Shown here piece after piece: positions 1 through 5,985 of a stretch of 46,648 bases of DNA. A program made the translations under genes and the position numbers. Below the pieces are notes generated by a model. It did not search any database and was not told the DNA's origin. It saw nothing but the letters and a program-made list of their open reading frames with translations. Within the stretch, counting starts at the first letter, position 1. Every line of letters starts with the position of its first letter. Source of the stretch: Gemmataceae bacterium (GTDB lineage Bacteria > Planctomycetota > Planctomycetia > Gemmatales > Gemmataceae); the NCBI GenBank assembly GCA_025055215.1, contig JANWYO010000059.1:1-46648 (forward strand). The letters run 5' to 3'.

Positions 1-37
1 GTTTCAATCCCCTCCATTTCGGGGCATCTCATCTGAC
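1..37 (-). CRISPR. CRISPR repeat at window edge (leader-proximal)
   Basis: The first 37 bases look like one CRISPR repeat. On the minus strand the element begins GTCAGATGAGATGCCCC and ends GGGGATTGAAAC. It holds a short CCCC/GGGG stem with an eight-base loop, and its last eight bases, ATTGAAAC, match the common 5' tag of crRNAs made by Cas6. The array should therefore be transcribed leftward, in the same direction as the cas genes at 674-5942, with the rest of the array outside the window. Only one copy is visible, so the exact repeat length (36 or 37) and the spacers cannot be confirmed here. The cas1, cas2 and cas6 genes next to it are the main support. Confidence 0.75.
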
Positions 38-673: not shown

Positions 674-952
674 TTAAAGAACTTCGTCGGTGTCGCCGCG
701 TTCCACATAGATGCCGGTGCCGAAGATCTCGGTGCCGGGGATGCACCGATTGCAGAGGTGGTAGATACGGACCGTGTCTTCGGTGGGGTCGATTTCCGCG
801 CGGATGATGTCGCGCAGGCGAACGAGAGGGCCGTCGTCGATTTCACCTTCAAAGACGCTTTTCTGCACATGGGGGAGGAAGCCTTTCAGGCGACGCATCA
901 GGCGGGTGCGTCGCCGGTCGCAGACGACATCATAGCAGACGACGACATACAT
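674..952 (-). CDS. cas2: CRISPR-associated endoribonuclease Cas2
   Basis: A 92-residue Cas2, the usual size. Cas2 is the central dimer of the Cas1-Cas2 integrase that inserts new spacers at the leader end of the array. The protein opens with MYVVVCYDVVCDRRR, the ferredoxin-like first strand with the conserved Asp at residue 8, and continues with the typical LPHVQKSVFEGEI segment and a late strand around residues 68-84. The open frame continues upstream to 1108, but the ATG at 952 is preferred because GGGAG lies seven bases before it and the added residues resemble no Cas2. The gene is the last of the minus-strand cas run, 294 bases after cas1. That gap shows no gene. Confidence 0.95.
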   Translation of the reverse strand: MYVVVCYDVVCDRRRTRLMRRLKGFLPHVQKSVFEGEIDDGPLVRLRDIIRAEIDPTEDTVRIYHLCNRCIPGTEIFGTGIYVERGDTDEVL

Positions 953-1246: not shown

Positions 1247-2308
1247 TCAAGCAGGGACGAAGGGGCGATAGGCGTCGTCCTTGCCATCGATGACACGCGC
1301 GAGGTGATAGACCTGTTCGCGGATAATGTCGCGCCATTCCAAGGAAGCCTGGCGGGGGGGATAGAAGAGGCGTTCACGGAGGCGGCGGAAGAACTCGGTA
1401 AGGAAGACGCGGCGACCGGTGTCTGCCAGGTAAACCCCCTCAGGGGCGGGATCGGCATCGAGTTCGTCGGAGGGAGGGTCGGCGAGGATTTCGGCGAGGT
1501 CTTGGCCTTGGTGGCGTTCGAAGTCGAGGGGTCCGAGCTGCCGGCGGTTGACGAGGCGGAGGACGAGGCTGTCAATGAGGGGGCGGAGTTCTTCGAGGAG
1601 GTCGAGCATGAGGGAAGGGCGACCGTAGTGGGGCTGATGCAGGAAGCCGAGCATGGGGTCGAGACCGGCGCGGAGGAGTTCGGACTCGATGATGCGACCG
1701 AGAAGGGTGTAGCCGAAGGACAGGCAGGCGTTGAAAGGATCGCGTGGGGGGCGGCGGGAGCGTCCGAGGAAGGTAAATTCGGGCGGCTGAACGAGTTTCG
1801 GCAGGTGGGCAAAGTAGATGGCGGCGGCACGGCCTTCGAGGCCGCGGAGCGTCTCGAGGTTGGTCGTGGCGCGGAGCTGTTCCAAGATGATCCAGAGCTG
1901 ACCGAGGGCTTGGGCGAGGGCGTCGTCACGGAGTTTCCGTTGGCCTCGGAGGAGTAGCTGCCGCTGGTGAGTGATTTTGCCGAGAAGGACGGCTTGGGCG
2001 ATGCGGGAGGCAAAGGCGGCGTCGAGGCAGCGTTGGAACTGGGCGAGGCGGAGTTGGACGTTTTTTGAGGCCGCCGAGAGGAGGCGGGCGCGGAAATACC
2101 CGTGGCGCGACAGGAAGACGACATCGACCCCCTGACGGGCGAGGGCCGCGATGGCGGCCGAGGTGAGTTCGACCTGGCCTAGGAGGACGAGCTGTTCGAT
2201 CTCCCCGAGGCGGACGCGACGGAGGACGGCTTTGTTCTTCTGGAGCAAGAGCTGATCACCTTCGATGTGGATGGCGACCCCTTGCTCGGTGATGGCCAGG
2301 GAATGCAT
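1247..2308 (-). CDS. cas1: CRISPR-associated endonuclease/integrase Cas1
   Basis: A 353-residue Cas1, the metal-dependent integrase that joins prespacers to the repeat with Cas2. The N-terminal beta domain (about 1-80) contains the AALARQGVDVVFLSRHGYF segment. The helical catalytic domain has Glu158 in GLEGRAAAIYF, His224 in GFLHQPHYGRPSLMLDL, and the acidic group Asp236/Glu239/Glu240 in DLLEELRPLID, which together match the Cas1 metal site. The tail past residue 285 is somewhat extended. There is no fused reverse transcriptase or Cas4 domain. The gene starts 71 bases after the CAPP stop, consistent with one transcript. No strong ribosome binding site is visible before the ATG. Confidence 0.95.
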   Translation of the reverse strand: MHSLAITEQGVAIHIEGDQLLLQKNKAVLRRVRLGEIEQLVLLGQVELTSAAIAALARQGVDVVFLSRHGYFRARLLSAASKNVQLRLAQFQRCLDAAFASRIAQAVLLGKITHQRQLLLRGQRKLRDDALAQALGQLWIILEQLRATTNLETLRGLEGRAAAIYFAHLPKLVQPPEFTFLGRSRRPPRDPFNACLSFGYTLLGRIIESELLRAGLDPMLGFLHQPHYGRPSLMLDLLEELRPLIDSLVLRLVNRRQLGPLDFERHQGQDLAEILADPPSDELDADPAPEGVYLADTGRRVFLTEFFRRLRERLFYPPRQASLEWRDIIREQVYHLARVIDGKDDAYRPFVPA

Positions 2309-2379: not shown

Positions 2380-4416
2380 TCAGCCTGGTTCCTTCTCCGG
2401 GTGACTTACCTGCTGAGAGGTCACGCCGCCAACGGGCGTGACGAAATTATTAGCGCTCGGTTCCTTCTCCGGGTGACTTACCTGCTGAGAGGGCGGACGG
2501 CCAGCCTCGTCCCCTGGTGAAGGGGGCTGCGCCTCGCGCTGGTGTGGCGTGGCCGACGTGGTCTCCGGAACCCATTGGAGTTCTTCGACGCCCTGGTCTT
2601 CCACCAGGCGGTAGCGGCCGCCCGGACAGGCGACCTCCCGGTCGGGGTGGAGCCGGAGGAGCGTGACGAACGCCTGGCGGAGGGAGTCGTGTTCGCGTTG
2701 CACCTCGGCGAGCTTGGTGGCGGAGGCAGCGAAGCGGCGGGCGAGGGTTTCGAGGTCTGGGGCCGGTGATGGCGGCGCCGGCGGCCCAGGGGGAAGGGTG
2801 AGAAGGTGGAGCAGGGGAGTGGGGTAGCGATCGGGGGCATAATCGAAGGAGCAGTTGCAAGGCACGCGCCGCGTGATGTGACCGACTTTTTTTCGGATGG
2901 AAGCACACGATACGGGGTTGCCGCGGAGCTGGCTCTTCAAGAGCTTTTCGGGACCGACATCGACGCACTTGCCCAAGAGGTAGTTGACGGCCTGAGGCCC
3001 TCCTTCGACGTGGCCGAGCGTATGGATCAGGACGAGTTGTTCCTCGTGGCTGAGTCGGCGATGTTCATCGACGGTCTGTTTCAGCTCGGCGAGAACGGGG
3101 CAATGATGGAGGAGGTGACGGATCCTTGGGTCGGCCGTGAAATCGGCCTCGGTCCAGGGTGGGGCCGGCGGCGGTGGCGGCGGCCCGACCGGGGGCGGTG
3201 GGGATTGACCGGGCGGTAGCGGGGCCTCCGCCGAGGCCAAGTCGGTGGGCACGGCCTTAAGACGATCGATAGCGGCGTACAAGACCGCCCGGGGACAACG
3301 GACCACTCGGCGAAGGGCTGCCAACGGCTGGGAGAGGGGCTGGCCTTGATCGTCGAGCAGGGCGGCGCGTCGACCGGTGCGGCGGTGGATGCCCAGGGGG
3401 AGTTTGATCAGGTTGCCCAAGCCTTTTCCGGAGCGGCTCCCCTGCTTGGGGAAGAATTCAAGGCGGAGCCCCGGGGGCAGCTGCGGCGTGTGCCAGGCGA
3501 GGAACTGGCGACCGAAGCGATGCAGCACATCGGCGGACTCCGGCTGTTCGAGAAAGACCCAAAAATGCCGTCCCTTGTATCCCGAATCTTCGAATATCAA
3601 TTCAAAACCGATGTCGCGGAGGAGGCCTAGTAGCTGAAGAGCGTGACGGCGCAGGGCATCGCGCAGGCTGCGGGCGATGCTCGGCTGGCGGAGCGCCTGT
3701 TCCAAGGCTCCCTTATCGATGTCCAGATCGATGACGAAGAAGGTACAGGTGCCGTCGAGACGAATGGGATAGACGCCGACCGTGTAAGTGCCCAGCAGAT
3801 GATTGCGGACAACCGCCACGGTCAGCGGCTCGTGCACCGGACTGTAGCCCCCTTCTCCCTTGGGGCTGGACCACTGCCGGGCATGGACGTCTTCTCGGCC
3901 GGCGAAGAGGGTCAGGAAACGGGCGCAGTCGGCATCGGAAGGGGCAAGCTCAACTTCTGGAGGCTGGTCGTCATCCGTGGCCTCGTGGCGGGCCAAGGTT
4001 TTGGCCAACTCAGGAGCTAAACCGGCTTCCACGGCCCGCTGGAGCGCGGCCTGCAAGCGGGGGCCGGCATCATCCTCGCGCAGCACCTCGGCATAAAGTG
4101 TCAGCCACTCCGCGTTGGCCGGCTGGCGGTTCAAAAGGCGTTCGAGCAAGCCCGCTGCTCGGCCGGTGTCGCCCCGTTCCCAATAGTGGCGGGCCAGGCG
4201 ATGGGCGGCGACGTCGTCGTCCGGGTTGTCGCGAAGGGCGAGTTGAAATTCCCGGAAGGCCAGGGGCATCAGCCCGGCCTCTTCACAGAGGAGGCCCCAC
4301 TCAGTGTGTCCGCCGCGCACCTCGCGGCGCGCGAGGACCGCGGCCTCCAGATCGGCCAACACAGTGGGGTCATCCCCGGAGCGGAGACGGTCACGAAAGG
4401 ACGCCAAGTCGGACAT
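2380..4416 (-). CDS. TPR-fused CRISPR-associated primase-polymerase (CAPP)
   Basis: A 678-residue archaeo-eukaryotic primase-superfamily protein. Residues 1-145 form TPR-like helical repeats. The Prim-Pol core spans about 160-390: motif I is DLDID (230-234), motif II includes SGYKGRHFWVF with His284, and motif III is KLPLGIHRR (338-346). After a proline-rich linker (395-420), a PriL-like region carries Cys439, Cys484, Cys504, Cys520 and Cys522, a plausible Fe-S site, with the LSHEEQLVLIHTLGHV segment. A short coiled coil follows at 555-590. Family knowledge: CAPP proteins such as that of Marinitoga piezophila make primers and DNA and associate with Cas1-Cas2, suggesting a role in spacer acquisition. 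AGGG lies seven bases before the ATG. The C-terminus contains two copies of SQQVSHPEKEP, encoded by a 34-bp direct repeat. Confidence 0.88.
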   Translation of the reverse strand: MSDLASFRDRLRSGDDPTVLADLEAAVLARREVRGGHTEWGLLCEEAGLMPLAFREFQLALRDNPDDDVAAHRLARHYWERGDTGRAAGLLERLLNRQPANAEWLTLYAEVLREDDAGPRLQAALQRAVEAGLAPELAKTLARHEATDDDQPPEVELAPSDADCARFLTLFAGREDVHARQWSSPKGEGGYSPVHEPLTVAVVRNHLLGTYTVGVYPIRLDGTCTFFVIDLDIDKGALEQALRQPSIARSLRDALRRHALQLLGLLRDIGFELIFEDSGYKGRHFWVFLEQPESADVLHRFGRQFLAWHTPQLPPGLRLEFFPKQGSRSGKGLGNLIKLPLGIHRRTGRRAALLDDQGQPLSQPLAALRRVVRCPRAVLYAAIDRLKAVPTDLASAEAPLPPGQSPPPPVGPPPPPPAPPWTEADFTADPRIRHLLHHCPVLAELKQTVDEHRRLSHEEQLVLIHTLGHVEGGPQAVNYLLGKCVDVGPEKLLKSQLRGNPVSCASIRKKVGHITRRVPCNCSFDYAPDRYPTPLLHLLTLPPGPPAPPSPAPDLETLARRFAASATKLAEVQREHDSLRQAFVTLLRLHPDREVACPGGRYRLVEDQGVEELQWVPETTSATPHQREAQPPSPGDEAGRPPSQQVSHPEKEPSANNFVTPVGGVTSQQVSHPEKEPG
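2387..2492. repeat. 34-bp exact direct repeat, two copies, 72-bp period
   Basis: Two identical 34-base copies lie at 2387-2420 and 2459-2492, separated by 38 bases. Each starts GGTTCCTTCTCCGGGTGACT on the plus strand. The 38-base interval contains a perfect TCACGCC/GGCGTGA hairpin at 2421-2441. The repeat sits inside the 3' end of the primase-polymerase gene, and the 72-base period keeps frame, so the protein repeats SQQVSHPEKEP. Repeat and interval lengths resemble a minimal CRISPR unit, but the sequence is unrelated to the repeat at 1-37. Confidence 0.9.
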
Positions 4417-4664: not shown

Positions 4665-4949
4665 TCAGGGACGCTGGGATCCCGGGGGACTGATGTCCAA
4701 GACCTGCCCTTCGCGCCATTTCCGACTATGGGAAGCTACCACCACCGTCCCGATTTTCGGGTCATAAACTCCTATGGCCGCGGCCGCAGAGCCGTGGAGC
4801 TTATGGAAGGCGACACCATATCTCCAGATAGGGGCCCTTCCCTCGATTATTACTAGGGCCCCCCTTGGGATAGGTGGCGGTTCCGGAAGCGGCGTCTCGG
4901 GTGTGACGGGTTCGGAGACGCCTATCGAGTAAAACACATAGTCGTCCAT
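4665..4949 (-). CDS. csx3: CRISPR-associated Csx3-like protein (candidate ring nuclease)
   Basis: A 94-residue protein resembling Csx3/Crn3. The core GALVIIEGRAPIWRYGVAFH (30-49) and GVYDPKIGTVVVASHS (60-75) followed by REGQVLDI follows the Csx3 pattern of GxGPIW, H, VYDPRLG and SHS. Family knowledge: Csx3 proteins bind and degrade cyclic tetra-adenylate, the second messenger of type III CRISPR systems. His49/His52 and Asp63 fall where the described active residues are expected; the usual Arg after YDP is Lys65 here. The region before residue 30 is proline-rich and shorter than usual. GGAG lies seven bases before the ATG. The gene sits between cas6 and the primase gene on the same strand. Confidence 0.78.
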   Translation of the reverse strand: MDDYVFYSIGVSEPVTPETPLPEPPPIPRGALVIIEGRAPIWRYGVAFHKLHGSAAAAIGVYDPKIGTVVVASHSRKWREGQVLDISPPGSQRP

Positions 4950-5063: not shown

Positions 5064-5942
5064 TCACTCGGGAGTAAGGTCTTCGCACCGGAAGTGCCCC
5101 AGACCAAAGACCGTTCCTTTGCCGACGTGAAGCCAGGCGGCCGCCACCAACAGCGGTGCCAAAGGGCCCACCCCCTCGGGTAGGAGCAAGACGCCACCGA
5201 CGCCACGGAGATCCAGCTCGGTTTCCTGACTGCCGGAATAGCGATGAAGGTTAAGCGGATAGCCCAACCAACGGCTGGGGCGAGCGCGGGCACTGGCCAG
5301 CAACAGGGCCTGGAGCGCGCGCCAAGGCGTCTGGTCTTCGTCGGGCAAGAAGGCAGCTAACCGCCGCCACGCTGCCACAGCCAAATCGACGAGCGTTGGG
5401 TGGGCGATCAGTTTTCCATCTCGGAGGAGGCGAAGCGGTGTGTAGAAGACGAGGCGGCACGGGGCATCAGGGTCGATGGGCCAGCGGGCTCGGTCAAGTC
5501 GCCAAGGCCCGAGGCCCTCGGCGGGCCGGCCGGTCGGCCCGAGGTCGATCCAACCCCGGATCCCGAAGGGGAGGCGTGCCGAGCCCAGCCCGTAACTTGT
5601 TGCCTTCTCCCAGGCGCGCCGCAAAGTTGCGTCACGGTCAACGGCCGAGCCAAACAGGATCCAGTCGATCGCCGGCTCCGCGGGCCGCTCGCCCAGGACG
5701 GGTCGCAGCAGGTAGCCGGGCACTACTCCCTGGGGTGGCTTGAAGACCTCGTCGTAAACGGCGCGGTCGACCTCGTACAGGGCTGCCCCCCACACCCCGC
5801 GAAGCATGGGAATCGTGACATTTACATTTGGGAGCGAGAGGAGCAATCGGCGGGGCCAGATCGAAATGCGTGCCAGGAATTGGTTTACTGACTCAAGCCC
5901 TTTCGGAGAGATGGCGGCCCTGTTTGGGGTGTCGGGTTCCAT
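5064..5942 (-). CDS. cas6: CRISPR pre-crRNA endoribonuclease Cas6
   Basis: A 292-residue RAMP protein of the Cas6 family, which cleaves the pre-crRNA within each repeat and leaves the 8-nt 5' tag. The C-terminal half has the typical layout: YSGSQETELDLRGVGGVLLL, then LAPLLVAAAWLHVGKG and the glycine-rich loop GTVFGLGHFR. The catalytic histidine cannot be fixed by eye. The ATG at 5942 is preferred over the in-frame ATG at 5963 because AGGAG lies eight bases before it. It is the first gene of the leftward CRISPR run, 114 bases before csx3. Its presence fits the ATTGAAAC repeat end at position 1. Confidence 0.85.
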   Translation of the reverse strand: MEPDTPNRAAISPKGLESVNQFLARISIWPRRLLLSLPNVNVTIPMLRGVWGAALYEVDRAVYDEVFKPPQGVVPGYLLRPVLGERPAEPAIDWILFGSAVDRDATLRRAWEKATSYGLGSARLPFGIRGWIDLGPTGRPAEGLGPWRLDRARWPIDPDAPCRLVFYTPLRLLRDGKLIAHPTLVDLAVAAWRRLAAFLPDEDQTPWRALQALLLASARARPSRWLGYPLNLHRYSGSQETELDLRGVGGVLLLPEGVGPLAPLLVAAAWLHVGKGTVFGLGHFRCEDLTPE

Positions 5943-5985
5943 CGGTGGTTCTCCTGTTGACATCGCTGATATTCTCGGTGCGGAC

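What the first reader, a model, noticed from the sequence alone, without database searches (positions are those of the whole stretch)
2380..4416. Primase-polymerase with TPR front, Fe-S-like PriL region and repeat-bearing tail
One chain joins protein-binding TPRs, an intact AEP active site (DLDID, His284, His344) and a cysteine set resembling the PriL Fe-S region. It could prime, extend and dock onto Cas1-Cas2 alone. It may fill gaps in prespacers or copy captured RNA or DNA.
Basis: partly seen in the sequence, partly recalled or inferred. Interest (0 to 1): 0.68.

Follow-up and report, generated by a model that had tools for sequence, protein, structure and literature searches.

The report
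CRISPR-associated primase-polymerase of a planctomycete
This gene encodes a known kind of bacterial enzyme that can start and extend DNA strands and sits beside the CRISPR spacer-integrating genes, where it probably helps make or finish new CRISPR memory; the only less-charted part is a conserved four-cysteine domain that weakly resembles part of the archaeal and eukaryotic primase.

Summary
The gene is real: 2380-4416, minus strand, 678 aa. It is a CAPP (CRISPR-associated primase-polymerase) of the published TPR type: NCBIfam NF040561 'type A1', 283 bits against a cut-off of 200. It lies in a cassette cas6 - csx3 - CAPP - cas1 - cas2 - CRISPR repeat, with type III effector genes on other contigs of the same genome. 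TPR front and AEP active site are confirmed. Of the five cysteines named, four (C439, C504, C520, C522) are almost invariant from planctomycetes to archaea, with near-constant spacing; C484 is not conserved. The four-cysteine domain folds confidently in prediction (pLDDT 96) but matches no solved structure. Three weak signals point to the PriL/Pri2 C-terminal Fe-S domain: a profile comparison, a sub-threshold Pfam match in one homologue, and a viral PriL model. Iron is unproven and zinc is equally possible. The 'repeat-bearing tail' is real DNA but disordered and absent from the closest relatives. Publications already describe this architecture, Cas1 binding, DNA-priming activity and a Pri2/PriX-like role for the C-terminal domain. 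Copying RNA is unlikely for this type. New member of a known kind; the open question is the metal and role of the cysteine domain.

The parts
2380..4416 (-). CAPP gene, 678 aa: TPR - AEP - four-Cys domain - helix/beta-hairpin - disordered tail
   Evidence: NCBIfam NF040561 282.6 bits vs cut-off 200; PADLOC PrimPol 'adaptation polymerase' 2.7e-82; AF2 mean pLDDT 87.6
3991..4410 (-). TPR-containing helical N-terminus, residues 3-142
   Evidence: Pfam TPR_19 over cut-off; nine helices in the model
3292..3924 (-). AEP (primase-polymerase) catalytic domain, residues 165-375; D230, D232, H284, E320, K338, H344
   Evidence: PF22548 1.7e-37; PDB 7nqd E 6e-30; Foldseek 7nqf E 2.4e-14; conservation
2779..3159 (-). 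Four-cysteine C-terminal domain, residues 420-546 (C439, C504, C520, C522)
   Evidence: conserved in 60 homologues; AF2 pLDDT 96.4
2566..2754 (-). Helix plus beta-hairpin module, residues 555-617, aligned with the Mu Gam/Gp157-TOTE-like domain of relatives
   Evidence: PF22709 in 30 of 60 homologues, e.g. L117 2e-21; predicted helix and hairpin here; this protein itself does not match the Pfam model
2387..2503 (-). 3' end with two 32-base identical direct repeats, 72 apart; disordered tail, not conserved
1247..2308 (-). cas1
   Evidence: PF01867 8e-86
674..952 (-). cas2, 92 aa
   Evidence: PF09827 5.9e-21
4665..4949 (-). csx3 (Crn3-type, cyclic-oligoadenylate-related)
   Evidence: PF09620 1.8e-20; PADLOC Csx3 3e-25
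5064..5963 (-). cas6
   Evidence: PF10040 5.6e-9; PADLOC Cas6 1.4e-42
1..37 (-). CRISPR repeat at the contig end, reverse complement GTCAGATGAGATGCCCCGAAATGGAGGGGATTGAAAC
   Evidence: about 30 of 37 bases match the array repeat of the Gemmataceae relative L069; the assembly stops here

Best explanation
It is a CAPP of class A, TPR type, from a Gemmataceae planctomycete, acting in the adaptation step of a type III CRISPR system. Proposed mechanism: the TPR+AEP part holds Cas1 (shown for the Marinitoga homologue, inferred here). The AEP domain starts a primer on single-stranded DNA with a purine ribonucleotide and continues with dNTPs, or extends an existing 3' end with strand displacement (shown for homologues, inferred here). 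This either makes double-stranded prespacers from single-stranded fragments or fills the gaps left after Cas1-Cas2 integrates the spacer (inferred). The four-cysteine domain behind the AEP is a metal-stabilised helical domain that most likely steadies the initiating nucleotide or primer 5' end, as the PriL/Pri2 C-terminal domain does for PriS/Pri1 (inferred). The terminal helix/hairpin module may grip duplex DNA (speculative), and the tail is dispensable (inferred).
For: NCBIfam type A1 far over cut-off; solved Marinitoga CAPP domain is the top sequence and fold match; intact conserved catalytic residues; cas6-csx3-CAPP-cas1-cas2-repeat order; 64 of 80 homologous loci carry cas1, and the four-Cys signature goes with cas1 or cas2 in 56 of 59 loci, the three exceptions ending within about 0.9 kb of the gene; CRISPR arrays in 35 loci; type III RAMP genes and a GGDD Cas10-like ORF elsewhere in the genome; biochemistry of homologues (PMC8211822).
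Against: No activity data exist for this protein; it is about 30% identical to Marinitoga CAPP over the catalytic domain. The type III effector genes are on other contigs, so their pairing with this cassette is inferred. Marinitoga CAPP's CTD binds Argonaute; whether this genome has one was not checked. A role in adaptation in living cells has not been shown for any TPR-type CAPP in the papers read.
Confidence: 0.8

Rival explanations
1. The four-cysteine domain is a zinc-stabilised structural domain unrelated by descent to PriL; it serves dimerisation or partner binding rather than a Pri2-like nucleotide role. (A rival about this domain only, not about the whole protein.)
For: No match in 350,542 PDB chains (best E 6.8); no Pfam match above threshold; spacing C-x64-C-x15-C-x1-C differs from archaeal PriL C-x70-C-x8-C-x6-C (L151); Marinitoga CTD self-associates and binds Ago, and the MpCAPP primase buffer contained ZnCl2 (PMC8211822).
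Against: hhalign against 28 archaeal PriL gives score 23.6, P 0.0025, above 200 column shuffles (max 21.4) and all other CAPP segments (13.5 or less), with C504 in register with the second PriL cysteine; viral PriL among structural neighbours; sub-threshold PF04104 over the right region in archaeal homologue L120.
Confidence: 0.45
2. The enzyme copies captured RNA into DNA for RNA-derived spacers.
For: Type III systems target RNA, and RT-fused CAPPs share the AEP and cysteine domain.
Against: No reverse-transcriptase domain here; MpCAPP of the same type is poor on RNA templates (PMC8211822); in CaCART-CAPP the RNA-templated activity is attributed to the RT domain (PMC10415136).
Confidence: 0.05
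3. A mobile-element or TOTE-type replicative primase that happens to lie beside cas1.
For: Best Pfam domain is AEP-TOTE; the C-terminal module also belongs to a TOTE-type Pfam family in relatives.
Against: Conserved linkage to cas1/cas2 across phyla; the homologues with no cas gene found nearby that could be read (L132, L133, L138, L139, L141, L142) lack the complete four-Cys set.
Confidence: 0.05

Closest known systems
CAPP class A, TPR type (Marinitoga piezophila / Marinitoga sp. 1137; NCBIfam NF040561 'type A1'; PADLOC PrimPol)
   Same: TPR - AEP - CTD with conserved cysteines, beside cas1-cas2, catalytic DxD, same fold of the catalytic domain (PDB 7nqd-7nqf, 7p9j)
   Different: Planctomycete host (the string 'planctomyc' does not occur in the main text of PMC8211822); preceded by cas6 and csx3 rather than linked to Argonaute; longer Pro-rich linker and a disordered repeat tail
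RT-fused CAPP (Caloramator australicus CaCART-CAPP)
   Same: AEP and C-terminal domain, CRISPR adaptation context
   Different: This protein has no reverse transcriptase
PriL / Pri2 C-terminal 4Fe-4S domain (Pfam PF04104)
   Same: Helical domain with four conserved cysteines, 'S-C' motif at the second cysteine, weak profile similarity
   Different: Spacing of the third and fourth cysteines; no significant Pfam or PDB fold match; fused to the catalytic chain rather than a separate subunit; metal unknown
TOTE conflict-system AEP primases (Pfam PF22548, PF22709)
   Same: Same AEP family; half of the CAPPs share the Mu Gam/Gp157-like C-terminal module
   Different: AEP homologues without cas genes nearby lack the complete four-Cys set

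Membership tests
CAPP class A, TPR type | Whole-length match to the curated family model | tested here: met
   NF040561 282.6 bits, cut-off 200, residues 23-586
CAPP class A, TPR type | N-terminal TPR domain | tested here: met
   TPR_19 over cut-off; helical repeats in model
CAPP class A, TPR type | AEP domain with DxD catalytic motif | tested here: met
   D230/D232/H284 invariant in 60
CAPP class A, TPR type | C-terminal domain with conserved cysteines | tested here: met
   C439, C504, C520, C522
CAPP class A, TPR type | Operon with cas1 and cas2 | tested here: met
CAPP class A, TPR type | DNA primase, polymerase and strand-displacement activity; Cas1 binding | not testable with these tools
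   shown for homologues only (PMC8211822)
PriL/Pri2 Fe-S domain (PF04104) | Match above the Pfam gathering score | tested here: not met
   none of 52 domains; best 12.5 bits against 22.4 in L120
PriL/Pri2 Fe-S domain (PF04104) | Four conserved cysteine ligands | tested here: inconclusive
   four conserved cysteines, but the C3/C4 spacing differs
PriL/Pri2 Fe-S domain (PF04104) | Same fold | tested here: inconclusive
   no PDB hit; viral PriL model, prob 0.77, E 1.2
PriL/Pri2 Fe-S domain (PF04104) | Bound 4Fe-4S cluster | not testable with these tools
   needs purified protein
PriCT domain (Pfam PriCT_1/PriCT_2) | Match to a PriCT model | tested here: not met
   no PriCT family among the 18 families matched by any of 52 domains at E up to 10

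The most novel reading that the evidence does not exclude
CAPPs are single-chain equivalents of the archaeal/eukaryotic PriS-PriL primase: the four-cysteine domain is a diverged PriL C-terminal domain carrying a 4Fe-4S cluster, recruited in cis into CRISPR adaptation across bacteria and archaea.
Probability: 0.3. Interest if true: 0.5.

Novelty: new member of a known kind. Interest (0 to 1): 0.3.

Why it matters
The protein itself extends a published family into a planctomycete with a compact cas6-csx3-CAPP-cas1-cas2 cassette. The testable point of wider interest is the four-cysteine domain: it is nearly universal in cas1-linked CAPPs and incomplete in the related AEPs without cas genes. If it is a PriL-type Fe-S domain, the two-subunit primase arrangement was recreated in one bacterial CRISPR enzyme, and redox or iron state might influence spacer acquisition.

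Tried and rejected
A global hhalign (-glob) against PriL gave nothing; only the local mode gave the P 0.0025 match. Foldseek of the full model was dominated by AEP and TPR. The idea that the tail repeat is a dispersed or CRISPR-like element was dropped: no other copy within 3 mismatches in the genome. Folding of the end repeat as RNA is not better than shuffles. Several homologous loci (L101, L102, L106, L107, L111, L131) were first read in a wrong frame; those rows were left out of the conservation alignment A2, and locus L105 appears frameshifted. The counts per column still include those rows and so understate conservation. The Nature 2022 paper on CAPP primer initiation is not in the library, so its content is taken from the review PMC10345425.

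Full report
What is there. The ORF at 2380-4416 on the minus strand is intact, 678 aa. It matches NCBIfam NF040561, 'CRISPR-associated primase-polymerase type A1', at 282.6 bits (cut-off 200) over residues 23-586, PADLOC 'PrimPol, adaptation polymerase' at 2.7e-82 and Pfam AEP-TOTE at 1.7e-37. The closest solved structures by sequence and by fold are the Marinitoga sp. 1137 CAPP catalytic domain (7nqd, 7nqe, 7nqf, 7p9j).

Surroundings. Reading on the minus strand: cas6 (5064-5963), csx3 (4665-4949; PF09620 1.8e-20), CAPP, cas1 (1247-2308, PF01867 8e-86), cas2 (674-952, PF09827 5.9e-21), and at bases 1-37 a sequence that is, by my count, about 30 of 37 identical to the CRISPR repeat downstream of cas2 in Gemmataceae locus L069. 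The contig ends there, and no second copy is in the assembly, so the array itself is inferred. Seven RAMP matches lie on contigs C50, C82, C136 and C290, and a Cas10-like GGDD sequence on C136, so the genome has type III effectors. A genome of the same family carries a CAPP with the same tail sequence as L069, which is recorded as Gemmataceae; this places the window in that family (inference).

Relatives. A scan of one genome per species gave 198 relatives, of which the best 80 loci were kept. cas1 is found in 64 of the 80 and cas2 in 58; the gene order CAPP-cas1-cas2 recurs, with cas6 and csx3 upstream in some planctomycetes (L066, L067; in L085 cas6 and csx3 precede a truncated CAPP). CRISPR arrays are visible in 35 loci.

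Cysteines. In an alignment of 60 homologues, C439, C504 and C522 are invariant and C520 nearly so; D230, D232 and H284 are invariant and E320 and H344 nearly so. The spacing is C-x64-C-x15-C-x1-C here, with x61-69, x14-18 and x1 across the set. Four cysteines go with cas1 or cas2 linkage in 56 of 59 loci; the three exceptions (L063, L074, L086) end within about 0.9 kb downstream of the CAPP. Readable relatives without cas genes lack the full set.

Is it a PriL Fe-S domain? AF2 models residues 420-546 with pLDDT 96.4. Foldseek finds nothing in the PDB (best E 6.8). Among viral models the best is a phage AEP protein (A0A6J5NV52, TM 0.63 on the query, E 0.017), and the third is an archaeal-virus primase large subunit (A0A1S5Y2Y2, prob 0.77, rmsd 3.0 over 82 columns, E 1.2). 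A local profile comparison with 28 euryarchaeal PriL domains gives score 23.6, P 0.0025; 200 column-shuffled PriL profiles reach at most 21.4, the reversed one 12.2, other CAPP segments at most 13.5. In that alignment C504 is in register with the second PriL cysteine, while C439 is two positions off the first. One archaeal CAPP domain (L120) matches PF04104 below threshold over the corresponding region (E 0.092, 12.5 bits against 22.4). Spacing in archaeal PriL (L151: C-x70-C-x8-C-x6-C, counted) resembles the CAPP for the first interval only. My reading: distant relation to PriL is about as likely as not; a 4Fe-4S cluster is possible, and zinc not excluded. The review PMC10345425 already proposes that the CAPP CTD acts like Pri2/PriX at the initiating nucleotide, and PMC8211822 labels it 'PriCT, containing conserved cysteine residues'; a scan for a Pfam PriCT match found none. 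No metal for this domain was found in the passages read.

Other parts. Residues 555-617 form a helix and a beta-hairpin; the aligned region in 30 of 60 homologues matches PF22709, the Mu Gam/Gp157-like domain of TOTE systems. This module is not mentioned in the passages read of the CAPP papers. Residues 624-678 are mostly below pLDDT 50. The two copies of SQQVSHPEKEP come from a 32-base exact repeat unique in the genome and are absent from homologues' tails, so I treat the tail as a private, probably unimportant feature.

Function. Steps shown for homologues: DNA-templated priming with a purine ribonucleotide start, extension, strand displacement, binding of Cas1 by TPR+AEP, self-association, poor use of RNA templates (PMC8211822). 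Steps inferred here: the same activities in this protein; prespacer synthesis or post-integration gap filling; Pri2-like role of the CTD. RNA copying is improbable without an RT domain (PMC10415136).

Verdict. A sound observation of a known protein type. Two corrections: four cysteines rather than five, and no evidence for a functional repeat tail. Additions: csx3 in the cassette, the Gam-like module, and the co-occurrence of the four-Cys domain with cas1/cas2.

Noticed in passing
window 4665-4949, minus strand: A csx3 gene (PF09620) lies between cas6 and the CAPP; csx3 occurs in the same place in planctomycete relatives L066, L067 and L085, which suggests a link to cyclic-oligoadenylate signalling.
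   Followed up: partly
window 2400-2460: Between the two 32-base direct repeats at the 3' end of the CAPP gene lies a perfect 8-base inverted repeat (GTCACGCC ... GGCGTGAC).
   Followed up: no
CAPP residues 555-617 (window 2566-2754, minus strand) and homologues: Half of the CAPPs end in a Pfam Mu Gam/Gp157-TOTE-like module, not mentioned in the CAPP paper passages read; Mu Gam binds DNA ends (general knowledge), so a duplex-gripping role is conceivable.
   Followed up: partly
own genome contigs C50, C82, C136, C290 (loci L144-L150): Several type III RAMP genes and a GGDD Cas10-like ORF are scattered on separate contigs, including an ORF of about 570 aa with two RAMP matches (L146).
   Followed up: partly
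L105 8001-10223: The CAPP ORF of this Pirellulaceae contig changes frame after the second conserved cysteine (frameshift or assembly error).
   Followed up: no
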